From: Nothopassalora personata
Lineage: Eukaryota > Ascomycota > Dothideomycetes > Mycosphaerellales > Mycosphaerellaceae
DNA: 64,000 nucleotides
Direction of reading: 5' to 3'
Assembly (NCBI GenBank): GCA_033816765.1
Contig: CM066295.1
Location: forward strand, 372,001 to 436,000
The notes under the pieces were generated by a model. The model was not told the DNA's origin, did no database searches, and saw nothing but the letters and a program-made list of their open reading frames with translations. The position numbers were made by a program, and so were the translations under genes. Positions within the stretch are counted from its first letter, which is position 1. Each line of letters starts with the position of its first letter. Positions 4,034-37,535 of this stretch are shown piece after piece.

Positions 4034-4420
4034 TAATTAAATCCCTTTAGGAACGAGAAGGTACGACGAAGGCGCGGATAGAGTATCGACGCCCGTACTT
4101 AAGAAACTCTAAAGATCCTTAAAGTCCTTCGATATCGCCTTCTCCTCCCGATCCTTAGTAATACGAAGTTATTTCCGAAGACGATACACTTTTAACATTA
4201 CCTCGGTTACCTTCTCTTTAGCCTTATCGAGCTCGCGCTTTAGCTTTCGACGCTAATTACGGAACCTCTTCTACTTAGTCTAAGTAATAGTAATATTATA
4301 CTTAATACCCTTATAAACATACTCTAAACAATACCTAAAGCGTATATCTACTATATACCGCGGACTCTTCTTCCCCTTAGGTACCCGGGCCTTTTAATAA
4401 GTAGAATAAGGGGACGGCAT
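4034..4420 (-). pseudogene. Antisense accessory gene remnant of Ty3-A (Cys-rich motif plus coiled coil)
   Basis: Reading leftward from an ATG at 4418-4420, the frame runs about 125 codons with stops only at positions that fit Q/W-to-stop RIP. It shows a degraded Cys cluster (several Cys now Tyr), including C-L-E-Y...KGIKY, equivalent to CX2CX6C. A charged heptad-rich segment follows (about 4110-4260), including the block KLKRELDKAKEKVTEV. The layout matches the antisense frames of Ty3-B, Ty3-C and N1. It starts 23 bp from where Ty3-F inserted; its promoter side continues at 18828. The function is unknown; a DNA- or RNA-binding regulator is an inference from the Cys pattern. Confidence 0.6.
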
Positions 4421-4443
4421 TTCGCGACCTTCGGACTCGATAC

Positions 4444-4834
4444 TATTAACGACTGATTAGTTGTGTTAACCTTAGGTTTAGTTGTGTCGACCTTAGGTTT
4501 AGAGGGGGGGGTTCCTTAGGTCTAACTTGCCCCTATTTCATTTAGGTTTAATTAGACATTTAGGTAAGCTAGCGGGACTAGTATAGCTGTTAAGATATAT
4601 ACTACGCAGTTGAGCATTGTAAGCGTAGCATTAAGGCAATAATTCAATTCATACCTCTCGAGTAGAGGGCATAGGGGTTTAGGTCCGCTAATCCTCTTGT
4701 TTTATCCGGCTACTACGCTACTCGTTACGTGACCTAATTTCACGGTCCCGGGACCGGCAAATACCTCTGCTTACATAAGCGCCGCTCTACACCACCATAA
4801 CTTAGACAGGCCTACACAGGGTGGTTAGTAGACA
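4444..4834 (+). repeat. 5' LTR of Ty3-F
   Basis: About 390 bp, nearly the same as 18435-18827 apart from scattered C/T and G/A differences and a G-run length change. It has a run of 8 G near 4503-4510, and a palindromic CGGTCCCGGGACCG core at 4743-4756 that recurs twice inside the element and once in the other LTR. Confidence 0.85.
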
Positions 4835-4914
4835 TTATTTTAGTAGTTAATAAGGGGGGGTATTAAGTATACACCTGGTAGCGTATTAGCATCTAGTTTG
4901 TAAGGTTAAAATCA

Positions 4915-5075
4915 CGGTTTAAGGTCTAAGGTTTACGGTTAAGGTCATTACTTAAGGTTAAGGTTTAAGGTTAAGGTTTAAGGTTAAGGTTCAAGGTTAA
5001 GGTTCACGGTTAAGGTCGACTAAGGTCGAAAACACTTAAGGTCTAAGGTATTTAGCAACAATCACGGTTACAAGG
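4915..5075. repeat. Degenerate 6-7 bp tandem repeat (TTAAGG-type) in the Ty3-F leader
   Basis: Many consecutive variants of AAGGTT/AAGGTTT/AAGGTC lie between the 5' LTR and the first frame. It resembles a telomere-type array but is TTAAGG and not TTAGGG, and it is interstitial within a retrotransposon leader. It probably arose by slippage. Confidence 0.7.
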
Positions 5076-5198
5076 TCCTATTAAGTAACAACTAGTATTA
5101 GCACATTCTAGAGTAAGTACTACGTAACAATAGATACGGCTACATTACTAGAAAAACTTAGCACCTTTACCGATATAGGTAGAGGCTACGAACAGCCT

Positions 5199-8040: not shown

Positions 8041-8132
8041 AAGTTACGGCGCTCAACCCACCGATTTGCTAAAGCCGGATTTAATAAAATTAGTAAGGTT
8101 CTCGCACTATCTCGGAAAACCCTCGGACTTTA

Positions 8133-8158: not shown

Positions 8159-9612
8159 AGCTATAGTAAGGAAAACGGATACGACTACGACACGACGCAT
8201 CTATAGGACGATACGACGCATCTATAGGAACCCGGCAAGGCTCTAACGCCTAGCAACCATTTAGCTCACTTATTAGGATTGCTTAGGACTGCTAGAGTAA
8301 AGGAACGAGTTATAGAAATTGGAACAGGCGCGTTTAAGGGAGATTCTATTACTAACGTTTATTTAGTTTAAGGGGATTAGCCTTCCGAGATCCTAAGGCA
8401 ATCTACATTAAATGCTTAGGCACGAAAGTAATAAGTAGGCTAACATATAGCTAATATTAGGATGCCGTAGGTCTTTACGATGTATAAGCGTAAGGCGGAT
8501 AAGAAGAAGCTAGTAGACGCGAGCGTTTACGAACGCCTAGAATCACGAGTTAAGGGAGATATAGAATAGAAGCGTAGGGCACTGTACCTAGAATCTAAGA
8601 TGCCTAAAGGACAAGGTCCGTTCGATAGGAAGTACTTAACTAAGAAATTCTTAAGTATTAAGCGAGGTAGCCGAATCACTCTAGAACGACTTACCTTAAT
8701 TAAGGTTAGCATTAAGCTATTACTAATGGAAAGGGCCTTATTCGATAAGATGCTCTATAACCGGGAGGCAGTCCTCGCTTAGGATTTTAGTTACATAAGG
8801 CAAATTAGGCACGACGTCGTGCTACCTTAGAAGGTTAACACGGTCCCTTATAGGCTATAGTAGGCACGCCCTATCCGGTTGTACCTAAGTCTTGAGGCAA
8901 TCGTTAAGCGCATAATTAGAGCCCGGATTAAGAATAATATCCTAGAATACTTATAAGGGGCATACTCTAATAGCTAGTTCCTAGTCGTAAAGAAGGTTAA
9001 TGCCTCTAGAAGCAATATGCTATATCGGTTAATTAACTTAGCTATGCTCCTAAACGAGGTTACTATGCGCGATGCTAACATTCCACCGGACACGGATAGC
9101 TTCTTAGAGGATTTTACCGGTTGCCGAGTCGCTTTACTTATAGACCTGTTTTTAGGTTATAATTAGATCACTTTAGATGAGTCCTACCGGGACTTAACAG
9201 CCTTTATGACCCCTCTTAGCCTAGTACGCAACACGACTCTACCTTAAGGGGCTACTAATTCGGTTACTTAGTTCGTGTGTACGGTAACAAAGATTCTACT
9301 TAATTATATCTCGCATCGAGCAAAGCCGTTTCTCGATAATATCGGTATTAAGGGACTAACTAAGGACTATAGGAATGCCGAAGTAGAGCCTAGGCTAAGG
9401 AGATAGGTCGTTAAGCACATCGTCTCCCTAGATCTAGTTCTTGCTAACCTAAAGAGAGCTAGTGCGGTAGTTGCTAGAGGTAAATCCTAATGGTTATATA
9501 AAAAGCTTAAGATTGTTAGGTACGTTACTAGCCCGGATAGTCGCTATCCTAACCTAAAGGTTGTAGCTAAGATCCTAGACTAGCCTACGCCTACCTATAT
9601 TAAGGAGGTCCG

Positions 9613-9947
9613 TGTTGCGGTTGGGCCTTGTCCCTCGTCACGTGGGTGGCCTAGGAAGTGTCGATCCTCGATATGTCTCTAAAGTAGTGTGAACGAGAGT
9701 TCACTACAAGGTTGCAACTTAACACAAGAGTGTTGATTTGAGTTGAGCACGAGGCTCCTATCTACTCGTAAAGAAGCGTCGTCTATATAGTGCCATGTCT
9801 TGGCGTGACTGATCTGAGTCGCTCAGCCTCAGTCTCGATCTGAGTCGTTCAGCCTCAGTCTCGATCTGAGTCGTCCACCCTCAGTCCTGCTGCCTCGCAG
9901 CCTGCATGAGCCCTTGTTGTTCGTAGCGAATGGACGTGTCCGTAACA
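9613..9947 (-). repeat. 3' LTR of N1
   Basis: It contains a 26-bp unit repeated three times (9811-9836, 9837-9862, 9863-9888; the third is diverged), beginning GATCTGAGTCG. A TATATA box reads on the minus strand near 9784-9789. It is identical on reading to 11693-12027. Read on +, an ATG at 9930 opens into the antisense gene, but that start lies inside the LTR and is not conserved in related elements. Confidence 0.95.
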
Positions 9948-9962
9948 CCACCTCCCTCCTCT
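9948..9962 (-). promoter_or_regulatory. N1 polypurine tract
   Basis: On the minus strand the bases just before the 3' LTR read AGAGGAGGGAGGTGG, the plus-strand DNA primer expected for an element transcribed leftward. This confirms that gag is the sense strand and that the 10050-10633 gene is antisense. Confidence 0.85.
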
Positions 9963-10049
9963 AGGATCAATGTCCCTATTGATCACGTGTCGTTGTCTTA
10001 TATAATCAATGCCCCTCCTTCGTTTCCTAACTTCCCCAAGTTTCAAAGG

Positions 10050-10633
10050 ATGTCTTCCAAATCTACCCTTTCTCGCAAGGCTCTTGTTGCTCGTATCCTA
10101 GCGGATTCGTGGCCTGCTCTTGTTCCTTGTGATACTTGTCGTCGTCTGAAACGGTCCTGCCAATACTCTTCCGATCTAAGGATGTCGTCGTCTTGTGCCC
10201 ACTGCGTCCGCACAGGCAGGTCCTGCGTCACCACCTCCTGGGAGGCGCTTGACCGAACAGCGGAGGAACTAGCCGCCAGGCTGGAAACGGATCGAAAAGC
10301 CCGTGACTCCCTGCTTGAACAGCTCGCCGCGCTCCAGTCCCGTATCACGAGAAACGAGCGAGTTCTCTCTGAGAACAGCCGCCGCGCGGACGAGAAATTG
10401 CGGTGCATGGCGCAAGAGGTGTCGGAGGAGGATGGTGACCCCTCTACTCTCGAGGAGCTGGAGGCCAACCTCCAGTCTGCCGGCGTCGGGTCTCCGTTCT
10501 CGTGGTCGGGTCCTTCGGGTGATTCCTCGGGTCACATGGTCGGGTAAGTTGTCCAGTATCCAGTAGTCATTTGTCCATGCCGTAATGTTGACTTCTATGT
10601 CCTAGGTCATCAAATCAAGAAGCCGCTGTTTGA
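10050..10633 (+). CDS. N1 antisense accessory gene: CX2CX6C-X11-CX2CX6C protein with coiled coil, two exons
   Basis: Exon 1 is 10050-10543 and exon 2 is 10606-10633. The intron (10544-10605, 62 nt) has GTAAGT, a TTGAC branch-type site and CTAG. Splicing replaces an immediate stop with nine more codons, giving 173 aa. C27, C30, C37, C49, C52 and C59 form two CX2CX6C halves, a layout like fungal Zn2Cys6 clusters but symmetrical. Residues about 66-130 are a charged coiled coil. The tail is Ser/Gly/Pro-rich. The start at 10050 (MSSK) is preferred over 9930 because 9930 lies in the LTR and Ty3-B starts MSSSS at the same place. A TATATAAT box is at 9999-10006. It is convergent with gag, 27 bp apart. 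It belongs to a family of repeated, uncharacterised ascomycete proteins; a regulatory or nucleic-acid-binding role is inference. Confidence 0.75.
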
Positions 10634-10660
10634 TGCCTTGCTGTCCTCAGGTTGTTTCTG

Positions 10661-11653
10661 CTAGGCAGATTTCGAGAAGAAGTTCTCGCATTCCTGGTAT
10701 GCATTCTCTTCGCGAATCATTGCGTTGAACTCGCGGCTAACCATGTTCTTTTTCTTGCAGTTCCTTGCAAAATGGCCTTGCTCGCCACATACGTAGCAGG
10801 TGGAACCTTTGCTCTTCAGCCCCCTTCCTGTCCTACGTTCCGTTACGTCCAATTCCATTGGGTCTCCGTAACCATTAGGGTCCTGACTTCTGGCCTTGAA
10901 GCCCCCTCTTCCGCCCGCGGCGGGTCTCTGGTATCCAGGCTGTACGAATCGGTCGTATCTCAAATCCTGGAGCCTTTCGTCGATTTCCTTTGCTACCTTA
11001 ATCATCGCCCCTAGCGTAACGACGCTGGCGTTTCGGGATAGCTCAGCTTTGACATTGTCCTTTAGTCCGAGGTAGAATTGCGATCGCAGTGCTGCGTCGT
11101 TCCATTCCAGGTCGGCGGCATATCCTTGGAACTCTGAGGCGTATAGCGCTACAGAAGTGGTCTGTCGAAGTTGTCGGATATGTCGGTCGGCGTATACCTC
11201 CTCGTTAGGTATCCCGTATAGATCATCGAGTTTCGTCTCAAACTCGTCGTAGTCGTGAAAAATTTTTCGAGTCTCCGTTTTCGGTGTTTCCCCCTCACCC
11301 TGGTTATGGAGCCAGTCCTTGAGGTATGGTCGGAATCCTCTAGCTGCTTTTCCACGTAGGAAGGATGCGGCGTACAAGACCTTGCTGGCCTCGCCTTGAA
11401 ACTGGTGTGCGTTGAAGTGAAGGTACAACTGAACCTGCAGTTGAAAAGCCTCCAGTTTGTCCTTAGTCCCGTCGAACGTCTCCGGCGTGGACACCTTAGG
11501 TGCACGGTGGTGGTCCAATGGGTTCAGCATGCCCATAGGAGTGTTGTTGTTCTTGCTGCTTCCTGTAATCGACATTTCGCTCATTCGTTCCGTGATGCCA
11601 GTTGACTGTGGCTGTTGTCGTGACGGACTCCGGGTAGCGTCTCTCCCAGACAT
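10661..11653 (-). CDS. gag: N1 gag polyprotein (nucleocapsid with CCHC zinc knuckle)
   Basis: An intact 330-aa frame from ATG 11651-11653. The N-terminus is Ser/Gln-rich. A capsid-type region (about residues 45-215) has the Ty3 gag features TPETFDGTKDKLEAF, then SFLRGKAARGF. A CCHC knuckle CX2CX4HX4C spans residues 286-299 (CYVCGEQGHFARNC). It would form the virus-like particle and package RNA. It starts 40 bp inside the 5' LTR. Nothing encodes protease or polymerase behind it, so the frame ends where pol would normally begin. No RIP stops are present. Confidence 0.92.
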   Translation of the reverse strand: MSGRDATRSPSRQQPQSTGITERMSEMSITGSSKNNNTPMGMLNPLDHHRAPKVSTPETFDGTKDKLEAFQLQVQLYLHFNAHQFQGEASKVLYAASFLRGKAARGFRPYLKDWLHNQGEGETPKTETRKIFHDYDEFETKLDDLYGIPNEEVYADRHIRQLRQTTSVALYASEFQGYAADLEWNDAALRSQFYLGLKDNVKAELSRNASVVTLGAMIKVAKEIDERLQDLRYDRFVQPGYQRPAAGGRGGFKARSQDPNGYGDPMELDVTERRTGRGLKSKGSTCYVCGEQGHFARNCKKKNMVSREFNAMIREENAYQECENFFSKSA

Positions 11654-11681
11654 ATAATCGATAGCACTCCCCGCGGCTTTT

Positions 11682-11692
11682 GGTGCTCAAAG
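11682..11692 (-). promoter_or_regulatory. N1 primer-binding region, self-complementary to the 5' end of its own RNA
   Basis: On the minus strand the LTR end (CAACA) is followed by CT then TTGAGCAC (11690-11683). This is not the TGG that starts a tRNA-primed site. The same octamer is on the opposite strand in the LTR at 11823-11830, so the RNA would contain GTGCTCAA there, starting 39 nt downstream of the TATATA box (11864-11869). This matches Tf1-type self-priming, where the first bases of the mRNA fold back on the site next to the LTR. Confidence 0.55.
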
Positions 11693-12027
11693 TGTTGCGG
11701 TTGGGCCTTGTCCCTCGTCACGTGGGTGGCCTAGGAAGTGTCGATCCTCGATATGTCTCTAAAGTAGTGTGAACGAGAGTTCACTACAAGGTTGCAACTT
11801 AACACAAGAGTGTTGATTTGAGTTGAGCACGAGGCTCCTATCTACTCGTAAAGAAGCGTCGTCTATATAGTGCCATGTCTTGGCGTGACTGATCTGAGTC
11901 GCTCAGCCTCAGTCTCGATCTGAGTCGTTCAGCCTCAGTCTCGATCTGAGTCGTCCACCCTCAGTCCTGCTGCCTCGCAGCCTGCATGAGCCCTTGTTGT
12001 TCGTAGCGAATGGACGTGTCCGTAACA
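11693..12027 (-). repeat. 5' LTR of N1 (promoter LTR)
   Basis: The same as the 3' LTR, including the three 26-bp repeats (11891-11968), which lie upstream of the minus-strand TATA box (11864-11869) where enhancer repeats would be expected. Transcription would start near 11830 and run left into gag. Confidence 0.95.
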
Positions 12028-14275
12028 GTCCGTACCTATGTAGGGCTGTGTATGTACTTCCGGATATAGATCCCCTAGTTCGTTATTATCGCTCGACTAA
12101 TGTATAAGCTACTAAAGAAGGACGCCGAGTTCACCTAGACAGAAAATAAGCAGTTCTTAAAAGAAGAGGTTACTAGATACCTTATATAGGCTCTAGCCTT
12201 AGTTACCCTCTACTACTCCTCTAGTACTAGGTCTATCTTTATCTTAGTTGATGCTAGCGGCACTAGATAGGGATGTATCGTTTCTTAAGAATTAATAGAC
12301 AGTACTCGACGGCGTTACCCGGTGCGGTATAAGAGTAGAATCTAGAACGCGTTAGAATCTAGATATAATGCTAGTAAGCGGGAATGCCTTAGGGTCCTTA
12401 AGGGGCTTAAGAAGATCTAAAGATATATCACTAGCGTTGATTTTATCCTTAAGGTTAATACTAAGACACTTATATCGTAACTTAACCGGCCGGCTTCGGA
12501 CCTACCTAACTCGGCAATAGCCCGGTAGGTCGCATAGATTAGGCTATTTACATTCGAAGTAAAGCACGTTACGGGAGCTAGGTATACTAGCCTAGATGCC
12601 CTGTCTCGTAGGCCCTCTACACCTTAGGAACCTAGGGAAGCTAACGAAGACGAAGTCAACTAGATGATTAATGATAAGCTATTCGGGTACCCGGAGCCGG
12701 TCGATACCTATCCAGTTAAAATCTAGAAAACACGATATCTCGGGGACTAATATTCTAAAAGCTCTTAGCAACTTACTTAGGTTATAGAAACTAGGACCCG
12801 GCCCGATAGTGTTACCCGTACTAAGTACCGGCGACTAGTAAAGAAGAGCGTTAATTTCTTTATCCGAGACTAATTGCTATTCTTCTAGAAGCGCCGAGGA
12901 GTACCGTTGTAACTTGTAATTAACGATAATAAGGCTTAGAAGGAGATCGTTATAGAATGCTATAAAAGACACGGTCATCGTAGCGCTAAGGCCGTGTATA
13001 ACCTTATTTCCGATCGGTATTACTAGGACGGGTGCTTCGCCGATGTCTCTACGTAGGTTCGAAGTTGTGCTCCTTATAGGTTTCGCGAAGGTAACTAGCG
13101 CGCTAGTAAGCTTCACTTATCGAGCCCTTAGGTCATTAGTGAGAAGTAGTACTCGGACCCCGTCTAGGTGCATAAAAATGGATACCTCCTAGTTACGCGC
13201 GAAGCACTTAGTAACTAGATCGAGGCTAGAGTAACGAGGGCACCTCCTAGCTCTAAGACGGTTACTAAGTTTCTATACGAAGATGTCTTCTATAGGCACG
13301 GCTACTATGCTAAAATTGTGCTTAATAACGCTACGGTTTATGCGGCTAAGGTTAAGCGGTTACTCGTAGGGCTTAGTATTCGAAGGATCCGAATATTACC
13401 GTACTATCCGCAGTCTAATGCTCCGGTCGAGGCTAGATACCGTCCGATTCTTATAGCGTTAGTAAAGCTTATAAGGAACACATACCGCGGATAGGAGTAA
13501 TGGGTACCCGCTATGTTATAGGCTAATAGGACCACGACCTGTCGTACTACTAGAATAACGCTAGCTTAGGTCCTATATAGCTATCGCACGATTCTACCAA
13601 TTGAGGTTAAGCACCCGACGTAGGCGAATTACTAATAGGGATCGGTAAGAACGACTAAGGACCTACTTGCTATACGTGCGCGTTAACTCTAGGCTCGAGA
13701 CCTTAGTTTAGAAGAGCTACATACTCAAAGGAAGCGACTAAGAGAACTTAGTAAGGACTACTTTAATTCTTACCGGAATGTTAACTCTATTAGTTTCTAG
13801 AAGGGCGACCTTATTATAAGATTCGACAAGCTATATAAGGATGACTTCTTACGCAAGATCGGTTACCGATAGTAAGGTCTATATCGGGTGTCTAGTGTCT
13901 CTAGGGAGTTTAGTACCTATATTCTTAAGGAACTTAATAGTACGCTAATAAAGGGTGTTTAGGCACGAGAAAACCTTAAGCTAGTTCTAGAGCTTCGCCC
14001 GGATAACATAGGAGTACTAAACTTGGATAATAGGACCGATCTCGTAATAGGGGAGGGAGAAGTCGCTAATAGCGTCGCTAATAGCGAAGACAGTAGTAAT
14101 TCGAACGAGATCGAGCCTATCGCCGACGAAGACGTGCTACCTGTAGGAGTTAATAAAAAGGGATCGTATCCTAAACCGGAATCTAAGAAGCTATAGGTTA
14201 GGCCTTATAACCTTTCTATAGCCAAAATTTTATAGTTCAGTAGGATCGAGGCTAAGAACTAATTAGTTAGTAATA

Positions 14276-19483: not shown

Positions 19484-20060
19484 ATGTCTTCTTCTTCCTA
19501 ATCTAAATCTACCGCTCGCCGTAAGAAGAAAGCCTAGTAGATCTTCCGTAACGGCAATACCGCGATGCGTCCGTGTAATTCTTATTAAAAGGAGGGCCGT
19601 ATATGTAAGGTGCACATCTTATCTAGTCGCTATTCTAAGTGCTAGTAGCGGAATCTAAAGAGTTACAATACGAGGGTAACCGAGGGCGAGTAGAAGCGCT
19701 TATCGCTTTAGCGGAAGAAATTGTTATAGGAACTAGATACCGCGAAGAGGATTCTTAGTGAAAGGTAGGATGCCTTAATAGAAGCGTATATAAAGGAAAT
19801 GCGCCTTCGTAAGCAATTAGATACGGTTAATTAGAAGGTTACGGAGGGTCGTTCGTTAGAAGATCGGTTATTACTAGACGAGGATCCAGGGGCGTAGGAG
19901 TACGCTATAGTAGACGCGGATCCTAGTGCTCCTAATCTGTCCTTGTCTCCTTAGACCTAGAGTGCTATCGAAGGTCTTCCGGACGACTTCTAGCTTTCTC
20001 CTTCTAGCGAGACGGTGCCGTCGGTAGCTTAGCCGTCTTCTTCGTAAGGGTATTTATTTA
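19484..20060 (+). pseudogene. Antisense accessory gene of Ty3-B
   Basis: From ATG 19484 (MSSSS) a + frame of about 190 codons carries only RIP-type stops. It preserves PCNSC...C, then S-R-Y-S-K-C...Y; that is CX2CX6C-X8-CX2CX6C with two Cys turned to Tyr (TGT/TGC to TAT/TAC). A long coiled coil follows (about 19690-19860; includes KKLL-ELDTAKRILSER, with one stop), then an acidic part and a Ser/Pro-rich tail. Its order and place match the N1 gene. A possible 3' intron begins GTAAGG at 20045, but I cannot confirm it. Confidence 0.7.
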
Positions 20061-20087: not shown

Positions 20088-20161
20088 GGCTAGGTAGCTT
20101 AGTAGTAGAGCGTAAGCTGTCTACACTCTTAAGGTCGTAGGTTCGATTCCTATTCCAGTCG
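20088..20161 (+). pseudogene. tRNA-like sequence in the Ty3-B 3' region
   Basis: A 74-nt span with an acceptor stem (6/7 pairs), a D arm (GCTT/GAGC), an A box (TAGCTTAGTAGTAGAG) and a strong T arm with B box GGTTCGATTCC. The middle contains CTCTTAA, which looks like a Lys(CTT) anticodon loop, but the matching stem is missing, so it is best seen as a tRNA pseudogene. Antisense to pol, as in Ty3-A. Confidence 0.5.
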
Positions 20162-20239
20162 TCCGTTTACTTAAAAGTTACCATGTCTTATAGTGTAGTT
20201 ACTTCTAAGTAAGCGCCGTTTTGATATTCCCGAATCTTC

Positions 20240-23200
20240 TACTAACAATTTCGTAGGTTTTCTTTTAGTCCCTAGGTATTTTCTAATTCGTCGTATCCCT
20301 TCTATTTAATAAGGTATCGCTAACCCTTTTTATCTAGGATTTTTTCGACTTTAAATTTGTTTTCTACTTCTAGCTCGAAATGGAAGCTCTCTTAGTAAGG
20401 TGTTCTAGCGTCTACGGGTTCTAGCTTAGAGATATAGAAGACTAGGTGGATTTTTGCGTTAGGTGGTAGTCGTAGTCGATAGTTAACTAGTCCTACGACT
20501 TTGTCGATTAAAAATGGTCCGACCTTAACGTAATCTAGTTTTTTGGTCTGTCTTCTTATTCTTAAGTTTTTTGTAAGGAGATAGACCTTATCCCCCTCTT
20601 TTAGTAGAGGTGCCATTTTTCTCGTGTCCTACCGTTGTTAAGACAGTTTTCGTTATGCATCTTCGATCGCCTTACGTGTTTCTTTATGCACTTCCTTAAG
20701 AGTATCCGTCGTCACGATTGCTCTCTCAGCTTATGGATGGGATCTAGGTGTTCCGAATAGGTTAGGATCTTTACTAAAGTTCGCATAAAATAGCGTCGTT
20801 AAAGTTGTCTCCGATTTGTAGTTGGTTAGTGCAATCTACGCTATTAGTAGTAATGAAACCCAGTTGTCTTATACATAGTTAATATAGTGTCGTAGGTATT
20901 GTTCTAGCGTTTAATTCATCCTTTCGGTTTGTCCGTCTATCTCCGGATGATATACTATTAATAGCTTGTGTTTGATTCCGATTGTTCCTATAAGCGTCTT
21001 CTAGTAATTTAATGTGAATAGCTTATCTCTGTCCGTTATAAACGCTTAAGGGAATCCGTAGTATCGGATAAGTCTATCTAGTACGAGGTATCCGAGCTGC
21101 TCTACATTGTATGTCTCTAATGTAGGAATGAAGTATACGTATTTCGTAAGTCTATTAACCATAACTAGTATTATGTCGTATAGTTGTTCCGTAACTTAAT
21201 CTCTTAACGGTAGGAGTTTCGTAATAAAGTCTATTATGACTTCGTCCCATGGTTTCGTCGGTAGTGTCCTAAACTGTAGGTGACCGTATTTTACATGTCT
21301 CGTAGCCTTGTTTCGTTAGTAGTGTACGCATTGTTTACTATAGCGTAACACCTTAAGTCTTATCTATGGAAATGAGAAACTGCGTTATATTAGGTCTATT
21401 GTTTTTAAAGTTCTAGGGTGCCTATATATTAGTCCGTCGTAATATTGTCGTATACATTCTTCTTCTCGATCCTTTAGTACTTAGTATTTTCCTTACGATA
21501 TAGGGAATTGTTCGTTCCTGTCGCCTAATATCCGTACGATGTTGTTAAATTCTCTTATGTTAGTACTAAGGCTTCCGTCGGGGTTCGTCTTTAATATTTT
21601 GTGTTACACTGGTTCTTTTCCTTCTATATAGTCGCTTCTTCGGCTTAGCGCGTCGGCGCGGCTATTCTCTCGTCCTAGAGTATATTTAATTTCGAACTTA
21701 TACTATCCTAGCAGCTCCGACTAGCGGGCTTGCCTTCGAGTAAGTTCTTTCGTCGTCGTGAAGTACGTAAGATTCTTATAGATAGAAAGAATCGTTAACT
21801 TCGGTAGGCCCTCGATATATACTCTCTAATGTTATATAGTAGCAACAATGGCTAGAAGCTCTTTATTATGGATGTCGTAGTTCTATTCCGCTATGGTTAT
21901 TTTCCGGGAGTAATAGGCTACTAGGTGTCTCTACCCGTCGTGTGTCTATGTTATACACGCGCCTATTGCTATATTAGACGTATCGGTCTCGATGTGGACT
22001 TCCTTGCTACTATCGAATAGTCGAAGCGTAGGAGCTGAAGCGCATTGTTCCTTAAGTTTCTTAAACGCTTTAATCTGTTCCTTTCCCTATTTCTAAGTGA
22101 CGTCTTTTCTCGTAAGCATCGTTATTAGTACTGCTATTTTTGCGTAGTCCTTAATGAATTTCCGGTTGTAGTTCGCTAGTCTAAGGAATAATTGTACGTC
22201 CTTAACTGTTTTCGGTTCTAGCCATTCTCTAATTAACTATGTCTTCGTAGGGTCGATCGTTATCCCTATAGTACTAATAATAAAGCCTAAGAATTTAACT
22301 TCTTTCTTATGGAATTCGCATTTCTCGGGTGCCGTCTTGAATCCTAAACGTGTAAGTCGTTCGAAGACGTCCTAAACTTGTTTTATATGTTCCTATAGGG
22401 ATCCTTTTATGTAGACTAGTATGTCGTCTATATAGGCAATAACGTATACGTCGAGTAGGTCTCTAAGTGTTTCGTTAACAAGGTCCTAGCAGGATACGGG
22501 TGCGTTAGTTAATCCTATTAGCATAACTAAGAATTCGTAGAGTCCGTATCTTGTCCTAAAAGCGGTCTTCTATTCTTCTCCTTCCGCTATTCGTATAGCG
22601 TAGAAGGTATCTCGTAGGTTAATCTTCGTATACTAGTCTAGTCCGGTTAATCTGTCTTATGCTTCTTCGATGTTAGGTAGCGGGTATCGGTTCTTAATCG
22701 TAATCTCGTTTAACTTCCTATAGTCTTATACGAGTTGTAACTTCCCGTTTACTTTTAGAACGAACATACATAGAGTTCCTATACTTAAGATGGATCTTCT
22801 TATCTATCCTTTAGCTAGCTTCTCCTTTAGCCATTCTCGTAGGGTCTATAGCTCTTTCTTAGACATTTAATATAGGGGTCCCTATAGAGGCTCTTTCCCT
22901 AGCTAAATGTTAATCTTGTGATCCTATAGGCGGTACTTAGGTAAGGCGGTTTTACCTCTCTCCTCTTTAAAGAGTCGCGACCACTTACGATACTCCTTAG
23001 GAATACTTAACTCTAAGATATTAGTATTCTTCGATAGTGCGTTACTTCTATCACTTCTAGTAACTTCATAACCCGGCGGCCCTACGCTAGTATCTATCCC
23101 GGTCGAAGGCGGTTCTTCTATCCTTCTGTTCGGCGTAAGCTATATCTCGTTTAGCTATTTCCTTGCCTTATCTACTAGTAAACGCTACTACTACGTAGGC

Positions 23201-23700
23201 TGAATGTCGATAACGCAATCGCATTCCCTAAATGTAAGTACTCCTCTTCTCTAGTCGATTACTAGATTGTGCTTTCTTAACTAAGGCATACCTAATACTA
23301 TGTTATAACTAGCTATATTAGTGACATCTAAGGTAATATTCTCGTGGTGCTATTAGATAGCCAGTGGCAATGGTATCGTCTCTTATTCTACGCTAGGTAA
23401 CGATAATCCGTTTACCGCGATTAACTCGTAACCCTATTCCTTCTTTAGGGTAGCTAACCCGTTTCTTCTTATAAAAGACTCGGAGATAAAATTCCCCGCT
23501 ACTCCTAAGTCGATCATAACACTAGTTTTATGTCCGTTAACGATTGCTTATATTTAGAAAACTGTGTTTAATGTCGATACGTAAGCCTAAGTATTGCATA
23601 ACTCCCTCCGGTCGCTTATTCCTAGGGAGCTAATCCTTTTCCCGAATAGTATATAGCTCGCTATACTTCGTGCCTAGAGGCTTCGGCTAGAACCTATAGC
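20240..23700 (-). pseudogene. Ty3-B pol: protease, RT, RNase H, integrase, GPY/F, chromodomain
   Basis: Read leftward: protease region near 23480-23100, RT about 22920-22260 with YIDDILVY intact at 22434-22411, RNase H about 22020-21640, integrase about 21550-20640, GPY/F linker inside the open 74-codon frame 20616-20392 (KVGPFLI...NYRLRLP), and chromodomain about 20420-20250. Stops are of RIP type. This is the best complete reference copy in the window for the A/B/C family. Confidence 0.88.
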
Positions 23701-25637
23701 CCGTTGCCCTATGTCTATACTTGTAATCTATTGCGTTCCTAGATCTTTTACGTTTCTAAGTAGAGAGCCCGTACGTGCTATACTACTGTTCGTAGTTCGT
23801 TTAAGACGAAAGTTCCTACTAGTGTTTAGTACCCGGTACCTGTTATTCGGCTTCCTATAGGTAGTTGTTCTATAATGGCGGTTGCTAGGTTTTCGGTTGT
23901 TTCTATAAGTGGGTATCCCTAGGCTATACCTCGTAGGGTGTCGAGTGTCTTGTTAAACTCAATGGAATGTAGCTTCCTTCGTCTACCTATCTTAGGTAGG
24001 AATTCCTCGTGCCTTCTTTATAGGTAGATGATTATGTCGTATAGCCTCTTAGGTGCATCTACCGTGAAGGTAAGTTGTTCGTTGTCGTCGTTAGTGTCGC
24101 TCTCTTCTCCTTCGGAGGAATCTTCTTCGCTTAATTCTTCCGGATCCTATTCTTCCTCGATGGTATCTAGCCCGGTGGTTTCTTAACTTTCTTCCTATGG
24201 TTCTAGTAACTATAATCCGTTCTATCCTAGGTCCTGATTTTCTTTGTCGCTTCTATCTTCGTTAAAGTAGGATTCGTCGATGTCTACTTCTCTAAGCGTA
24301 GCGTTTTGCCTATGCGTCGCTCCTAGGGTTCCTCGTGGTTACTAAGGCTAATACCCTACGCCTAACTTCGCGGCGTAGTAGATTTAACACGAGTCTTAGT
24401 AACAGAATCGCTAATAAAGGCTTCTATAACCATTTCGAGACTCTAATTCGATCTCGTAGTCGGCTCTTCGTGTCATTATGTTAAACTGTCGTAGTTGGTT
24501 CTTCGCATTAAATGGAATGACTACTATTTGCTGCCTATGGTATCCTCCTCGTCCTTCTAAGGGGTCTAGGAGAGGCGTCGTGCTTCTATTGCTAGCTCTC
24601 TCCTCTACTCTCCGAGTATAGTCGGTATCTCCTCGAGACCTAACGCTACTCTTAGATTTACTAGTTCGGGGTTGTATTATATTAAACTGCTCGCGGCGCA
24701 CTATATTCTTACCGCGGCAATCCCGCGCTATGTAGCCTTCCTTACTATAGGTATAGTATGTGAGTTTTCCTTTTCCTTTAAAGGGCTTTCCGTAGCCCCT
24801 ACTCTTAACGATCTTCCGTCCTCGTTAGGTAACGTCCAGTTCCATTGGTTGTAGTCTATAGTAGGGTTGGCTTTATCGTAAGAATTCTCCCTTCGTAACA
24901 TATCCTCCTAAGGGTCTACGGTCCGGAGCATATCCTACTATTCCTCCTACTTTAGAGTCGTATTTCTTTTCCTAGTGTCGTTCCTAGAGCTAGTTATCGA
25001 TGTTGATCGACGCCTTTATTAGCTCTTCGAGGTTAGTAATCTATCCCCCGTGTCTTATTAACTCGTCCTTAACGGAGTCTTTAAGTCCACGTCGGAATAT
25101 AGTCATTAACGCCGTCTAGTCCTATCTAGTGATTTGTCCGTATTCTTCGAATTTGGCGGTATACTCTAAAGCAGACGTCTTCTGTTTTAGGTGTTAAATG
25201 ATTCGTATAGCCTATTAGACTTCGTTCGAGGTTCTAAAGATTAACTTCATCTTTTCTTTAAAAAGGGTGTAGCTCCTAAACATTCTAGTAGGGTCTAATC
25301 GTCCTATACCTTTAAGGTATTCCTTAAGGTAAGGTTTAATCTAGTTCTACGCACTTCCGCGAAGGTACGTAATAGCGAAGATAGTTCTTTTATCGGCATC
25401 GACTAGGTTAAACATAAGGTACATATCTATCTAATTAATCCAGTCGTCGAACTTAGCTCTATCTCTATAGAAGAGGTCTAGCTTAGTAGCCTTAACGTCG
25501 TTCTTCCTTAGGGTAGGCTCGTCATCGTTATTAGACTTATCGTCCTTCGTAGTAGTCTATTATAGTGGCGCACGGCGGATGCTTCCTACTTCGCTAGGGG
25601 CGGGTGTTCCCCTACTAGCTGCTTAAGTAGCGCTCAT
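23701..25637 (-). pseudogene. Ty3-B gag
   Basis: Begins at ATG 25637 (MSAT), 18 bp inside the 5' LTR. The capsid-type region follows, with a degraded zinc knuckle at about 24750-24700: two of the first Cys and the His now read Tyr, while KEG and IARDC remain. Behind it lies an acidic Glu/Asp/Ser linker (about 24170-24080). The open frame 24701-24411 is an internal piece of gag and not a separate gene. Confidence 0.75.
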
Positions 25638-25644
25638 CCTAAGG

Positions 25645-26491: not shown

Positions 26492-26496
26492 TATCG

Positions 26497-27754: not shown

Positions 27755-28325
27755 ATGTCTTCCTTAATATGCTAAAGGCTCCTTCCTCCTCGAGTACCTC
27801 TCGTTGTCTTAAGTTAGCCGAAACTATCGATAACTTTAGAGAAATAATAGTACGGTCCTATTCTAACTATCGGGCGCATTTACGGGTATGTAAGGTATAC
27901 GTATTATCGGGGCGGTATAATAAGTGTATTCGTCGAAACATCCGTTATAATATAAAGGTATTACGTTCCGAGTTCGATCGCCTTATTAGTAAGAAGAAGA
28001 AACTACAGCGGTAGATAAAGGAAGCCCGTAAGGCTTAAGAGCGTACTTGCGAGGCCCTAAATACTACGTATATAAAGGAAGAACGGTTACGTAGGTAGAT
28101 AGAGCTCGTAGATTAGAGAGCCGACGAGGCTATTACCGTAGAGTCGGCGAACCTATTAGAGCTAGAGTAGGAGGAGTTAGCGGACTTCTACCTAGCTCCT
28201 AATACTTAGAATCTTCTAGTCGACTAAGGTTATAATGTCTCCTCCGATTTCTAGTTATATAGTCCTCCTCCTCTTTAAGGTTCTTCCGGCGCTAGAAATA
28301 CTCTATTAGAAGTAGCCGGTAGTTC
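27755..28325 (+). pseudogene. Antisense accessory gene of Ty3-C
   Basis: The region from 27769 to 28016 is open for 81 codons and includes RSYSNYRAHLRVCKVYVLSG then NKCIRRNIRYN, i.e. CX2CX6C-X8-CX2CX6C with four Cys turned Tyr. A Lys/Arg/Glu coiled coil (about 27960-28110) and an acidic, Ser/Pro-rich tail follow through RIP stops. An upstream ATG at 27755 (MSS-) matches the starts of the N1 and Ty3-B genes but is out of frame, so a small indel is likely. Antisense to pol, directly inside the 3' LTR. Confidence 0.65.
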
Positions 28326-28329
28326 TTAA

Positions 28330-30155
28330 GGTTTCTTTCTAGTTCCTAGGTATTTTCTAATTTGTCGTATCCTTTCTATTTAATAAGGTATCGCTAACCT
28401 TTCTTATCTAGGATTTTTTCGACTTCGAATTTGTTTTCTACTTCTAGCTCGAAATAGAAGCTTTCCTAGTAGGGTGTTTCGGCGTCTACGGGTTCTAACT
28501 TAGAGATGTAGAAGACTAGGTGGATTTTTACGTTAGGTAGTAGCCGTAGACGGTAGTTAACTAGTCCTATAACTTTATTGATAAAAAATAGTCCGACCTT
28601 AACGTAATCTAGTTTCTTAGTCTATCTTCTTATTCTTAAGTTTTTTATAAGTAGATAGACCCTATCCCCCTCTTTTAGCAGAGGTGCTATTTTTCTCGTG
28701 TCTTGCCGTTATTAAGACAGTCTTTATTATACATCTTCGATCGCCTTACGTGCTTCTTTATGTACTTCCTTAAGAGTGCCCGTCGTTACAATCGCTCTTT
28801 CGGCTTATAGGTAGGATCTAGGTGTTCCGAATAGGTTAGGATCTTTTCTAAAGTTCGTATAAAATAGCGTAGTTGTCTCCGATTCATAGTTGTTTAGTGC
28901 GATCTACGCTATTAGTAGTAATGAAACCTAGTTGTCTTATACGTAGTTAATGTAGTATCGTAGATATTGTTCTAGTGTTTAATTTATCCTCTTGGTTTAT
29001 CCGTCTATTTCTAGATAATATACTATTAATAGCTTATGTCTTATTCCGATCGTTCCTATAAGCGTTTTCTAGTAGTTTAATATAAATAACTTGTCTCTAT
29101 CTATTATAAATGCTTAAGGGAATCCGTAGTATTGAATAAGTCTATCTAGTATAAGGTATCTAAGCTATTCTATATTATTATATGTCTCTAATGTAGGAAT
29201 GAAGTATACGTATTTCGTAAGTCTATTAACCATAACTAGTATTATATCGTATAGTTGTTTCGTAACTTAATCTCTCGACGGTAGGAGTTTTATAATAAAG
29301 TCTATTATAACTTCGTCCTATAGTTTCGTCGGTAGTGTCCTAAACTGTAGGTAACCGTATTTTGTATGTCTCGTAGCCTTATTTCGTTAGTAGTGTACGC
29401 ATTATTTAATGTAGCGTAACACCTTAAGTCTTATCTATAGGGATAAGAAGCTACGCTATATTAGGTCTATTATCTTTAAAGTTCTAGGGTGTCTATAAGT
29501 TAGTCCGTCGTAATGTTATCGTATGCATTCTTCTTCTCGATCCTTTAGTACTTAGTATTTTCCTTACGATATAGGGAATTATTCGTTCTTATCGCCTAAT
29601 ATCCGTACGATATTATTAAATTCTCTAGTGTTAGTACTAAGACTTCCGTCGGGGTTTGTCTTTAGTATTTTGTGTTACACTAGTTCTTTTCCTTCTATAT
29701 AGTCGCTTCTTTAGCTTAGCGCGTCGGGGCGGCTATTCTCTCGTCCTAGAGTATATTTAATTTCGAACTTATACTGTCCTAGTAGCTCCGACTAGCGGGC
29801 TTACCTTCGGGTAAGTTCTTTCGTAGTCGTAAAGTACGTGAGATTCTTATAGATAGAAAGAATCGTTAACTTCGGTAGGCCCTCGATATATACTCTCTAA
29901 TATTATATAGTAGTAATAATAGCTAGAAGCTCTTTATTATAGATGTCGTAGTTCTATTCCGCTATCGTTATTTTCCGGGGGTAATAGGCTACTAGGTGTC
30001 TCTACCTATCGTGTATCTATATTAGATACGCGCCTATTGCTATATTAGACCTATCGGTCTCGATGTAGACTTCCTTACTACTATCGAATAGTCGAAGCGT
30101 AGGGGCTAAAGCGTATTGTTCCTTAAGTTTCTTAAATGCTTTAATCTATTCCTTT
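28330..30155 (-). pseudogene. Ty3-C pol, 3' part: RNase H, integrase, chromodomain
   Basis: Collinear with 20240-22080 of Ty3-B. Chromodomain about 28500-28340, integrase about 29640-28730, RNase H from about 30100 downwards. The rest of pol continues after Cop-1 (35770-35963) and after Ty3-D (43098-43750), where the RT box reads YIDNILVY (about 43262-43239). Confidence 0.85.
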
Positions 30156-33400: not shown

Positions 33401-35522
33401 ACTCTACACTAGTAGAAGCTATCCCTAGGAATAGGAATAGGTTCTTTTAAGTCTATTACCTTATAAAGATTCTAGAGCAAGTTCTTCCTAAAGTGTGCAA
33501 ATCTTCTATGCTAAAGCTCCTACTGTTTTAGGTTAGTCTCTAATTTAGCAGTTATAAAGGCATTCTCTATTAGTGGTGCATATAATAAGTGATGTGCCCT
33601 TTCTTATAGTAGAGGAGAAATCTCATTAATGAATGGAACCCCCCTAAGAAGCCTTATCTAGACAATAGTTTAGCTAGAGGGGGATATAAGAGAAAATAAA
33701 GGAGGTTAGACACTAAACTGCTTACTAAACTGGTTCTAAGAAACTAGGTTCACCCCTAGCTTAGGTATAAGTAGAACATCTTCTAAAACAACTTTCCTAC
33801 TAGATCTCCTACTTATCTCTATAGTCCTAATATAAGTGGCTAACAAATGCCTACCTCCTACTTTAATCCATTTCTTCTTTATTAAGGGAGTTATAGATCT
33901 AAAGAGGCAGTTCTAGTTAGTTATATAGGATAAAGCATAAGAATCAAGTAACTACTCTAATAAGGGAAACTTGCCTTAGACTTCTGCAGTTAAGTGAGCT
34001 ACTTTATTATACTTATTATTATTAGATATTGTCTTCTAGGATGAGTTGCATAAGTTAGGTGGCTCTTAGGTAGAGAAACCTTTCCTAGTCTTCCTTGTTT
34101 TAGAGGAAGGAGACTAGGCCTAGTTCTTCTAGAGTAATAGCATGTTAGAGCTAAGTTTCTTCACTATTTTCTTAAGTTCCTCTATAGAGGACTTCTCTCT
34201 TAGTGTTCTTCTTAAAGATAGTAGTAGAGATCTTCTCTTCTTAATATATGTTACATTCTAGGAGGATAGTGCTTAGGAATAAGATCTAAGGACCTTCTTT
34301 ACCTTAGAGAGACTAGGGCAGTCCTTAATGAGATAGTCCTTCTTATAGAGAAGGCAGGAAAGTGATCTTACCTAACCTAAGGGCCTAACCTAGGTGGCTG
34401 CTATACTATACTTAGCCTTAGAGGGATTTAATCTAGCCTCTTGAGCCTTAAGGATCTTTAAGGTCCTTTTATGATCTATCTTTAGCTAAGCTATAATAGT
34501 ATCCCTAGCTACATAGTAGTTAGGTAGCAGTGAGCTTAAAAGCTAGGTTATTCTTACATTAGCTTTCCTATAGTACTGGCCCTCTAGGTCAACATTAGCA
34601 ATCCTCCTTCTAAGAGACACTAGGTGTGCCTATGTAGATCTAATAGTGAACTCTTTACTTATCTTAAAGTTCATAAACTGTTTTATAAGCTTATGTACAT
34701 AGGTTAGTAACACCTAGCTATACTTGTTCTAGAGATGCACCTATATCTTAGCAGCTTTTCTAGATTCGTAAGAGCCCTTAAGCTTAAATTTATCTTCTTC
34801 TATAATCCTACTTAGGATACTAAAGCAGTAAGCTATATTTTGTTTTGTCTATATTAGTACATTAAGAATCTCTTTAATCTTAGTCTCTTCCTAGAGTTTT
34901 AGGTTCTTGCCCTTAATGTTGTTAAATGACACTTCTAATAGGTCATTAATTGCAAAGAATGCTAACTGGCTCTCTATCTTATATCTCTAAAGGTTGAACT
35001 ATCTCTTCTAGTTGTCTCTCCTAAGAATTGGGATTTTAGTTTCCTTCTCTTCTCCTTTCTCTTAGTGTAAATCTATAATGAATTGAATGTAATGAAACAA
35101 GGTGTATATGCTTTAAAGTCGTAGCTTAGGTCCTACTAAGGCTTTTAGTGTAGAATAGTAAGGTTCGTAGGTGTAGATACTAAGGCCTACTTAGTAGGGT
35201 AAAGAAAGAGCGGTGTAGTCTCGGAGCTAGGACACAGGTCTATCTCTCCTAGTAGAGTTCTAAATGACTTACTTAAAGTCCTTCTTAATAGTATCTCGAT
35301 GCAGTTCTGCCTATAGAGTGTCTTTAAGGTATTAGCTTATAGTAAGCCGCATAGAGTCCTTTTCTAGATTACCTATTACTTAGTATTAAACTAAGCTCCT
35401 TAATAGGATAGATAGGGTAGACTTCTACTTCCTAGATGTTTTCTGCTATAATAGCAAGGGATACAAGTAACCTGTACTAATATAGGTTGCTCTTACTCCT
35501 ATATAAACCCGGGCTTATAACC
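30403..35522 (-). pseudogene. Cop-1 gag-pol remnant
   Basis: Approximate blocks from right to left: gag 35100-34300, protease/GAG-pre-integrase 34250-33400, integrase 33400-32650, RT 32450-31350, RNase H 31200-30450. The only open + piece over 60 codons, at 31781-31963, is a shadow. Domain limits are approximate; the RT and RNase H motifs are clear. Confidence 0.75.
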
Positions 35523-35769
35523 TATAAAGTTGAGACCTTACAGGATACGTAGTTAGCAGCGGAGTGGAGTAAGAGATTAATCTTCAACTAGCTAATAGCC
35601 ACAGGGCATGCAGCAATATATTAGGAACCAATGCGTTAATTGTGTTAGATGTCTATCTAAGCTAAAGGGGAGAGAAGGTGTCTTCCGATAAGCTAAGTTA
35701 TCGTAGATGCCTTAGGCTATTAGATCACAACCTAACTGTTAGCTCCCGTTGAGATGCTACATCTTAACA
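35523..35769 (-). repeat. 5' LTR of Cop-1
   Basis: Starts TATAAAG (TG changed to TA) and ends CTTAACA. Flanked on its left by + CCCGGGCTTATAACC, the primer-site complement. Confidence 0.93.
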
Positions 35770-35963
35770 CCTTTCCCTATTTCTAGGTAACGTCTTTTCT
35801 CGTAAGCATCGTTATTAGTACTACTATCTTTACGTAGTCCTTAATAAATTTCCGGTTATAGTTTACTAGTCTAAGGAATAATTATACGTCCTTAACTATT
35901 TTAGTTCTAGCTATTCTCTAATTAACTATGTCTTTATAGGGTCGATCGTTATCCCTATAGTAC

Positions 35964-36161
35964 TATAAGGACCGTAAGGCTATAAGGGGATGTCGTAATA
36001 TATAGTACGCCTACGATCTTCTAATCGTAGATAAACTAAAGCTTAATTTCTTCTATCTACGCTATGCGCGTCTCCTAGTGTACGCATACGCGTTACGTAC
36101 GGTATACTAAGCCGGGCATAGCCGCATTATATATAAGGGTTAGCTATAGGCTACCCTTATA
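35964..36161 (-). repeat. 3' LTR of Ty3-D with polypurine tract at 36162-36176
   Basis: The + strand right after the LTR is ACTACCTCCCCTTCT, so the minus strand has a purine run directly before the LTR. Confidence 0.9.
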
Positions 36162-36589
36162 ACTACCTCCCCTTCTAGGATAAGCTACCCTTAGCTCGCG
36201 GCTTTAGGAGGTTTCTATATAAGTAATCTATCTACTTCTCGTAGATTCCGTTGCTATACGACCCGCCTACGGGTCTCGTACGTGTCGTGATCGTAGTATA
36301 GGTAGGTATAAAGTTATAGTTACCGGGTTAACTAACTCGAGGGTTTAAGAAGCGTACCCTCTCCCTCCTTTTCCTTCTTTTCCCTTATACTACGTTCTCG
36401 TAGCGTACTACACCCGCACTACTAGCGATCTACTAGCTCCTCGCTAGCGACTATCTAGCGACCCGCTAGTACTACTATAGCTTTAGAGGAAGCTATCTAA
36501 GACTAGCTCCGCTAGGAGGCCCTTATAGGGGGCCTATTAGCACTACTAACACTATTACTAGCACTACTAGCATAGATGTCTAGCGCGCT

Positions 36590-37535
36590 CGGCGTACTAG
36601 ATACGCTAGCGAAGCGTAAGTTTAGCGTACTAGGCCGTAGACCCCTAAGTCCTTACTAGCTAGGCGCCTAGGTATAGATATTAAGATATGTATACGTTAT
36701 CTCCCGTACTTTATAGCTAGTAAGTATTCGCTACGCTCTTCGCTTACGATGCGCTTACTAACAGTATAGTAGACGAGTAGGATACGTATAATAGTATTAC
36801 TACCGGCGAGTTACTTAAGAAGTGTAGGCGCTATAGAGACATTAGGCACCCCTACGTTAGTAACACTAGCGTCGCTATCGCGTAGCTAGTAGCTCGCCTA
36901 CGCGCCGCTCGCGCCTAGCGCGATAAGCTTATCTAGGGGCTTAGTGACCCTATTACTAAATGAGAGTAGGATGCTCTAGACTAGTAGTACGAGGTCTACG
37001 CCTAGCTAGGCGAGTAGATCTTAGAGGTAAGTACTACGCCTCGCTAGCGCTCCCTACGCTCGCCGTATACGGCATACTATCGCTCCCTATATAAATCGGC
37101 TAACCTCCTCCTAGGCTAAGAGGCAGTTTAGTACCTATAAGAATAAGCATATGGGCGACACCCGCGTACGCTTCGCCGGCGCCTCTACTACTACTACCCC
37201 CTCCTCCGCCGCCGCTACTACGTCCGTAGTTCTATAGTAAGAGTAGAATAGGGCCCTTAATAGGCTCTTCGAGCTCGGCCGTGCGGTAAGTAATATACGT
37301 GTCGTATACGTGTCCTATGCTAACTATAGTTATAGTTCCTATAGGCTAGAAACATTAATACTACTACGGCCGATAGGGCCTTCTTACTACTAGCCCTACG
37401 GGGCGAGTATAATAAGGAGGATAATAAGGATAATAATAACGAGTAATCGCGCGCTCCGCGTATGTTAGCCGCCTACTACGCGCCTATCTTCTATCTACGT
37501 AGCGCCGTAGCGCGCTCTATAAAAGTTTGTTTTTA
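36590..37535 (+). pseudogene. Antisense accessory gene of Ty3-D, with at least three spliceosomal introns
   Basis: Protein-like exons in one splice-consistent frame: an exon ending LPYFIA (36718); intron 36719-36775 (GTAAGT, TACTAAC, TAG); exon with GELLKKCRRYRDIRHPYVSN and a coiled-coil-like segment; intron 37027-37114 (GTAAGT, CTAAC, CCTAG); exon with MGDTRVRFAGASTTTT; intron 37286-37344 (GTAAGT, GCTAAC, TATAG); final exon with Asn/Asp-rich and hydrophobic parts to about 37530. All introns keep the frame. RIP stops break the exons. The sequence is not obviously like the CX2CX6C frames, though it occupies the same place and strand. Function unknown. Confidence 0.55.

What the first reader, a model, noticed from the sequence alone, without database searches (positions are those of the whole stretch)
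4034..37535. An antisense gene is carried by every Ty3 element here whose 3' region (other than the Ty3-F type) is visible
At the same place (between pol end and 3' LTR) and always opposite to gag-pol, a protein-coding frame is found in Ty3-A (4420-4034 -), N1 (10050-10633 +), Ty3-B (19484-20060 +), Ty3-C (27755-28325 +) and Ty3-D (36590-37535 +). Four of them share CX2CX6C-X(8-11)-CX2CX6C plus a coiled coil, seen through RIP as Cys-to-Tyr changes; D differs in sequence. Conservation of place, strand and domain plan over several families argues for selection on an accessory protein, for example a zinc-cluster-like regulator of the element or of host silencing. Accessory frames in fungal Ty3 elements are known in places, but an antisense zinc-cluster-like gene kept across families would be a distinct system.
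Basis: partly seen in the sequence, partly recalled or inferred. Interest (0 to 1): 0.88.

Follow-up and report, generated by a model that had tools for sequence, protein, structure and literature searches.

The report
Retrotransposons' antisense zinc-cluster regulator-like gene
Many fungal jumping elements in this genome carry, on the strand opposite to their own genes, a small gene for what looks like a Gal4-type DNA-binding protein that appears to be swapped between elements together with the control region beside it, which suggests that each element carries its own switch.

Summary
The predicted fold's few ranked neighbours are all Zn2Cys6 DNA-binding domains, at low Z. N1 is a gag-only element. 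Thirteen such short types share a nearly identical gag but differ in the antisense gene and the adjoining U3; in the six types aligned, TATA-R and (N1 apart) U5 are shared too. U3s hold family-specific repeats (13 of 16 against shuffles; R-U5 controls 0 of 5). Gene and U3 stay paired where checked; in one pair with differing U3 backbones the repeat follows the protein. Best reading: an antisense-encoded Zn2Cys6 regulator of its own U3, exchanged as a cassette. Binding and the sign of regulation are inferred. An antisense gene (brtn) in fungal Ty3 elements was known; I found no report of the zinc cluster, cassette or pairing.

The parts
9613..12027 (-). N1: short Ty3-type element, gag-only, identical LTRs, TSD GTCCG (9608-9612 and 12028-12032)
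9613..9947 (-). 3' LTR of N1 (in gag sense); the U3 stretch used here (LTR start to TATA box) is 9793-9947
11693..12027 (-). 5' LTR of N1, identical to the 3' LTR
9811..9886 (.). family-specific direct repeats in the N1 U3 (units holding ACTCAGATC and ACTGAGGC), next to the TATA box; second copy at 11891-11966 in the 5' LTR
9998..10007 (+). TATA-like TTATATAATC about 50 bases before the antisense ATG (seen by eye, not tested)
10050..10543 (+). antisense gene of N1, exon 1: Zn2Cys6-type cluster (CDTC..C, CAHC..C), long predicted helix, acidic tail
10544..10605 (+). predicted intron GTAAGT...TTGAC...TAG; precisely absent in families L049 and L054
10606..10633 (+). predicted exon 2 (..SSNQEAAV stop), in the module shared with other short families
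10661..11653 (-). gag of N1 (Retrotrans_gag, CCHC), 98-99% aa identical to the gag of six other short types compared
4130..4456 (-). Ty3-A antisense gene, RIP-decayed
19484..20014 (+). Ty3-B antisense gene, RIP-decayed copy of family F10 (78.5% aa)
20194..25424 (-). Ty3-B gag-pol, F10 type, opposite to the antisense gene
27775..28179 (+). Ty3-C antisense gene, RIP-decayed; closest to metagenome proteins P0012/P0013 (46-49%)
28298..30154 (-). Ty3-C pol fragment, F10 type

Best explanation
The antisense frame is a genuine gene, spliced in most short families, for a small Zn2Cys6-type DNA-binding protein: N-terminal segment, binuclear-cluster-type domain, helix of about 65 residues (probably a dimerising coiled coil), acidic tail with nearly invariant P and W. 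I think it binds the family-specific repeats in its own element's U3, which lie in the 5' LTR upstream of the gag(-pol) TATA box and, in the 3' LTR, directly upstream of the antisense gene. It would thereby switch its own family's transcription, more likely as an activator or anti-silencer than as a repressor. Regulator plus U3 form one cassette (V). Template switching between co-packaged RNAs joins V to a shared R-U5-gag module (C), with the junction at or near the intron. Shown: coding selection, Cys invariance, antisense place, mosaic structure, U3 repeats, gene-U3 pairing in two families. Inferred: DNA binding, target, sign of regulation, transcription and splicing, mechanism of exchange.
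For: Own-genome protein search: 126 matches, 95 of which I grouped into eight multi-copy families; 88 of 95 have no premature stop over the matched stretch, the other 7 are F10 copies (7 of 14) with one TAG. dN/dS 0.040 (95% 0.01-0.08, L049-L054) and 0.086 (0.05-0.14, L047-L050). Six Cys are the only invariant residues in 23 proteins. N1 scores 20.9-21.0 bits against the PF00172 cut-off of 21. AlphaFold2 model: block pLDDT 80-91 over the cluster, a short helix right after each CXXC; the seven rows of the VIA list are all Zn2Cys6 domains, Pho7 33 residues at 1.7 A. Mosaic: TATA-R and gag alike (U5 too, N1 apart), U3 and antisense gene not; gag pS 0.005-0.14 against pS 0.66-0.75 for the F3/F4/F6 antisense genes. 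U3 repeats exceed shuffles in 13 of 16 families, R-U5 controls in 0 of 5. Pairing: 19 of 19 recognisable F3 and 5 of 5 F7. Cluster identity and U3 word content correlate, r 0.47, 0 of 5000 permutations. AAGAGA[GT]C: 6 sites each in L049 and L054 (proteins 97% identical, U3 backbones different), 0 in the other 14. Splice signals in 9 of 13 short types, and a precise intron-less counterpart in two more. Last 60 residues net negative in 51 of 54.
Confidence: 0.6

Rival explanations
1. The protein is a repressor or copy-number limiter of its own family: it binds U3 repeats and shuts the element down, so that new V cassettes win because resident repressors do not recognise them, like phage immunity groups.
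For: Explains cassette diversity on one gag background and the regulator-operator-like layout with repeats next to both promoters.
Against: The acidic tail with conserved P and W resembles an activation domain (resemblance recalled). Selection to keep a self-repressor in gag-only elements is harder to explain.
Confidence: 0.2
2. The protein acts on the host or on the replication cycle (silencing, nuclear entry, integration-site choice); U3 variation is driven by a host transcription factor or by chance recombination, and the pairing is plain linkage.
For: Gene and U3 are adjacent. Related motifs (GAGAGCA, TGATCAG) recur in several families. For crapaud of Podospora, U3 diversity was discussed without any such gene (PMC10787394, sections 8 and 12 read).
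Against: The motif follows the protein rather than the U3 backbone in L049/L054. A host-factor model does not predict diversity in the antisense protein.
Confidence: 0.15
3. The antisense transcript matters as RNA (double-stranded RNA, small RNAs), not the protein.
For: Antisense transcripts of LTR elements may give small RNAs (discussed in PMC7264820, passages read).
Against: dN/dS 0.04-0.09, changes concentrated at third positions; invariant Cys across 23 proteins.
Confidence: 0.03

Closest known systems
brtn, antisense gene of Boty-like Ty3 elements (Botrytis, Sclerotinia; Zhao 2011)
   Same: [quoted passage not shown] original not held)
   Different: Whether brtn encodes a Zn2Cys6 protein or pairs with a U3 could not be checked; no such statement in the passages read
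VANC proteins of VANDAL transposons (Hosaka 2017, PMC5735166; abstract and section 9 read)
   Same: Element-encoded, sequence-specific protein whose targets often form tandem repeats that vary strongly between related elements
   Different: DNA transposons of plants, DUF1985/DUF287 proteins, hypomethylation shown; here an LTR element, Zn2Cys6 type, antisense, binding unknown
crapaud LTR subfamilies of Podospora (PMC10787394; abstract, sections 8, 12 and passages read)
   Same: One LTR element with a largely homologous internal region and 14 LTR subfamilies that differ mainly in U3
   Different: Only gag and pol frames are shown; the word antisense does not occur in the main text; no linked regulator proposed in the parts read
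Gal4/Leu3/Hap1/Pho7-type Zn2Cys6 transcription factors
   Same: Cysteine pattern, short helix after each CXXC, long helix behind it
   Different: Short proteins (159-240 aa) with no room for a middle homology region (recalled feature), long first spacer in some families, carried by retroelements
Foamy virus Tas, HTLV HBZ (recalled, no call)
   Same: Retroelement-encoded regulator of the own LTR; HBZ is antisense
   Different: Unrelated proteins and hosts
Plant antisense aORFs (Grande, RIRE2, Retand; PMC7264820, passages read)
   Same: Antisense frame between pol and 3' LTR
   Different: No clear similarity to database proteins described there; function not known

Membership tests
Zn2Cys6 binuclear cluster (PF00172) | Pattern CX2CX6CX5-12CX2CX6-8C (pattern recalled) | tested here: inconclusive
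   Six Cys found in 20 of 20 proteins. Of 15 distinct ones 10 have the canonical first spacer of 6 (some with an extra Cys), 5 (F9, L047, L049, L050, L054) have 13 there
Zn2Cys6 binuclear cluster (PF00172) | Pfam gathering score | tested here: inconclusive
   N1 20.9 and 21.0 bits against 21; only 5 of 23 members match at E up to 1
Zn2Cys6 binuclear cluster (PF00172) | Fold | tested here: inconclusive
   [not shown]
Zn2Cys6 binuclear cluster (PF00172) | Binds two zinc ions and DNA | not testable with these tools
   needs protein chemistry
Ty3/Gypsy (Metaviridae) element | LTRs, gag, pol order PR-RT-RH-IN | tested here: met
   F2 and F10: LTRs identical over 378 and 410 bases, gag with Retrotrans_gag and CCHC, pol with protease, RVT_1, RNase H, Integrase_H2C2 and Chromo in that order; rve core 29.2-30.9 bits, below its cut-off 32.6. 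N1 and the other short types fetched whole have gag only
brtn of Boty | Antisense gene between pol and 3' LTR | tested here: met
   F2, F10, and B and C of the window
brtn of Boty | Protein homology to BRTN | not tested
   sequence not available here
VANC | DUF1985/DUF287 protein | tested here: inconclusive
   not among the 4 families listed for N1; for the other members only 25 of 82 families were shown, without these. Used as a works-like comparison only

The most novel reading that the evidence does not exclude
Fungal Ty3 elements evolve like modular regulons: a Zn2Cys6 regulator encoded antisense at the 3' end and its cognate U3 repeat array form a self-recognising cassette that is swapped between gag(-pol) chassis by template switching. 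It creates many orthogonal transcription groups in one genome and explains why U3s, but not the rest, diversify in fungal LTR elements.
Probability: 0.5. Interest if true: 0.9.

Novelty: new variant of a known kind. Interest (0 to 1): 0.78.

Why it matters
It would give a function to a class of antisense retroelement genes whose role is described as unknown (PMC7264820), and a candidate answer to the question, left open for crapaud, of why U3 regions of one element diversify (PMC10787394). It also offers a set of natural, possibly orthogonal Zn2Cys6 protein-site pairs that can be tested in yeast.

Tried and rejected
Single-sequence search of the 5.8-billion-protein set with N1: none at E up to 1; alignments found 9 and then 32 proteins, 39 distinct, without genomic context and nearly all unnamed (P0031 is named Elasticomyces elasticus). 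Foldseek against the PDB: nothing at E up to 10 for either model. D as a member: no match; not pursued further. tRNA as primer of F10: rejected by eye, since the sequence behind the 5' LTR is complementary to the element's own R region instead. N1-like RIP-decayed copies as autonomous parents: of six looked at over 3.3-3.6 kb, five have an N1-type gag beside the gene (L007 rearranged) and L008 only a gag fragment, with an F10-type gag fragment on its other side; none shows pol. A viral-contig scan failed for lack of a conserved stretch.

Rows dropped: A2 holds 15 of this genome's proteins and 8 of 9 P proteins (P0009 lacks the first Cys); A3 holds N1 and 34 of 39 P proteins (P0009, P0032, P0033, P0034, P0037 left out as short or partial). 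One search used 95 of 126 matches. Only 17 of 57 unlinked gag copies were fetched.

Papers: searches. None of the listings shows a Zn2Cys6 gene antisense in an LTR element; most subscription papers are not held, so absence in print is not shown.

Full report
What is there. The profile of intact antisense proteins finds four places in the window: N1, B, C and A. D does not match. In each of the four, gag or pol lies on the other strand; in A the pol match ends about 1.4 kb before the gene. N1 is a young 2.4-kb element: LTRs identical over their length (together), target-site duplication GTCCG, a 330-aa gag (Retrotrans_gag, CCHC), no pol, and the antisense gene next to its 3' LTR. Six copies of the gene at (rounded) 100% DNA identity and six more at 82-87% lie in the genome.

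Genome-wide picture. Searching the own genome with the N1 protein gives 126 matches. I grouped 95 of them into eight families. By reading, 88 of 95 have no premature stop inside the matched stretch, if the single TAA shown for N1, F3 and F6 copies is the normal stop at the splice donor, as the sequenced representatives show; the other 7 are F10 copies with one TAG. For F7 and F9 the match covers only about residues 3-130. The other 31 matches are mostly RIP-decayed copies and fragments with several stops. The N1 gag finds 121 scored copies (of 1043 candidates) at 98-100% identity. Of these 121, 64 have a listed antisense match within 900 bases: 62 in the expected arrangement, and two flagged 'odd' because my script took the neighbour in a tandem; by the coordinates each of these two also has its own match on the expected side. 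Of the 57 others I fetched 17: 14 have a full antisense six-Cys frame, L063 a shortened one (internal deletion), L059 one that lacks the C-terminal half and is open to the end of the stretch fetched, L057 none. So 16 of 17 keep an open frame over the cluster, in families the N1 query had missed.

Coding selection. Between L049 and L054 215 codons differ at 4, 5 and 49 first, second and third positions, dN/dS 0.040; between L047 and L050 195 codons at 13, 16 and 72, dN/dS 0.086; bootstrap ranges exclude 1. Of 16 pairs run, three are near-identical and uninformative (L058-L062, L050-L055, L048-L056) and the other eleven have dS of 1.5 or more or beyond correction; their ratios run from 0 to 0.39 and carry little weight. 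The frames do not overlap pol in F2 and F10. Across 23 proteins (15 from this genome, 8 from metagenomes) only the six Cys are invariant. In a set of 35, five of the six are invariant and the sixth nearly so, P0031 lacking that stretch.

Mosaic structure. In six short types aligned as they stand, U3 and the antisense gene are 12-89% identical in 75-column windows, mostly below 60%. The TATA/R window is 73-93% in the 5' LTR and 61-93% in the 3' LTR, the gag 91-100%. U5 is 85-100% alike except in N1 (43-56%). Gag pS is 0.005-0.034 among F3, F4, F6, F7, F9 and 0.13-0.14 to N1, while antisense pS is 0.66-0.75 for F3/F4/F6. Common descent without exchange cannot give both. For the other seven short types the gag is known to be 98-99% identical to N1's; their LTRs were looked at, not aligned. 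The thirteen antisense proteins fall into eleven groups at under 70% identity. The autonomous pair shows the same contrast: F2 and F10 pol 82%, gag 79-80%, antisense protein 24-26%. In the window, A, B and C have F10-type pol but three different antisense genes. The drop in identity lies at the 3' end of the antisense gene, where 9 of 13 short types have GTAAGT...TTGACTTCT...TAG and the same tail. F7 and L048 lack the donor. In L049 and L054 a matching C-terminal peptide follows without an intron (SHQESAV against SNQEAAV). This supports a real antisense intron and places the module border there. Template switching between packaged RNAs would produce this pattern (inference); the crapaud authors discuss the same route for U3 (PMC10787394, section 8).

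U3 repeats and pairing. The stretch between LTR start and TATA box holds more repeated 7-mers than 500 shuffles allow (5 or fewer reaching) in 13 of 16 families; F3 (17), F9 (59) and F2 (8) miss. R-U5 of the five families tested shows none. Unit types differ: F4 has 19 sites [AT]CGAGCAG, L049 and L054 have 6 AAGAGA[GT]C each, L047 13 and L050 6 TGATCAG/GCTCAG, L048 4 GGATCTG, N1 5 ACTCAGATC/ACTGAGGC (motifs chosen after looking). Some are shared: TGATCAG/GCTCAG also 4 in F7, 2 each in F9 and L060, 1 in N1; TCGACC/ACGACC 7 each in F6 and L059. Of 40 scored places of the F3 U3 (91 candidates), 19 have a listed antisense gene next to them, all F3; of 40 of the F7 U3 (99 candidates), 5, all F7; the rest are 5' LTRs, solo LTRs or next to unlisted genes. 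Only these two families were checked, and only genes of my eight families could be recognised. Similarity of the cluster and of U3 words correlate over 15 families (r 0.47, 0 of 5000), the tail less (0.35, 5 of 5000); cluster and tail correlate at 0.84; the partial value 0.36 has no test. Linkage alone predicts part of this. The most telling case is L049/L054: proteins 97% identical; over the distal 61 bases of U3, L049 is 80% like F9 (whose protein is 63% identical), L054 is 62% like L058 and 56% like L049 (2 of 200 shuffles reach this); yet both keep a repeat that none of the other 14 families has. One pair, chosen afterwards.

Mechanism. The layout puts U3 repeats upstream of gag in the 5' LTR and upstream of the antisense gene in the 3' LTR. 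A dimeric Zn2Cys6 protein reading short repeats fits. The acidic tail (51 of 54 net negative; L048, P0032 and P0037 not; the set includes partial sequences) and the nearly invariant P and W favour activation or anti-silencing. VANC of VANDAL transposons is the closest working analogue: an element-encoded protein with tandem-repeat targets that vary between related elements (PMC5735166, abstract and section 9). Not shown: expression, binding, sign.

Novelty. [quoted passage not shown] Zhao 2011 not held). No listing among my paper searches shows a Zn2Cys6 antisense gene or its pairing with U3. I rate it as a new variant of a known kind.

Noticed in passing
L046:1790-1863; RIP-decayed copy in window about 20089-20163: tRNA-like sequence (RF00005, 50.6 bits) between antisense gene and pol in F10 elements; ARAGORN reads anticodon CTA, and finds none in the decayed window copy; at least 15 identical copies, similar ones elsewhere such as L069.
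   Followed up: partly
leader between 3' LTR and antisense ATG, e.g. window 9965-9984: Hairpin with loop around TCC; stem sequence differs between families but stays complementary (7-8 bp in 9 of 14 families, 5 bp in the other 5). Of 7 tested against shuffles, F2 and F4 do not stand out, five do (1-10 of 1000).
   Followed up: partly
5' LTR ends of N1, F3, F4, F6, F7, F9, F2, F10: Sequence after the 5' LTR is complementary to 8 bases of the own R region (TTGAGCAC/GTGCTCAA, TTGAACGC/GCGTTCAA), as in self-primed Tf1-type elements (seen by eye; comparison recalled).
   Followed up: no
G000:C12:1355698-1367583: Six short elements in tandem with a 2056-base unit, likely LTR-LTR recombination.
   Followed up: no
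L041; L052 against L049: Number of U3 repeat units differs between the two LTRs of one element and between copies of one family.
   Followed up: no
window 36590-37535: Ty3-D 3' region belongs to another abundant family (40 long matches at 93-100%); whether it ever held an antisense gene is undecided.
   Followed up: partly
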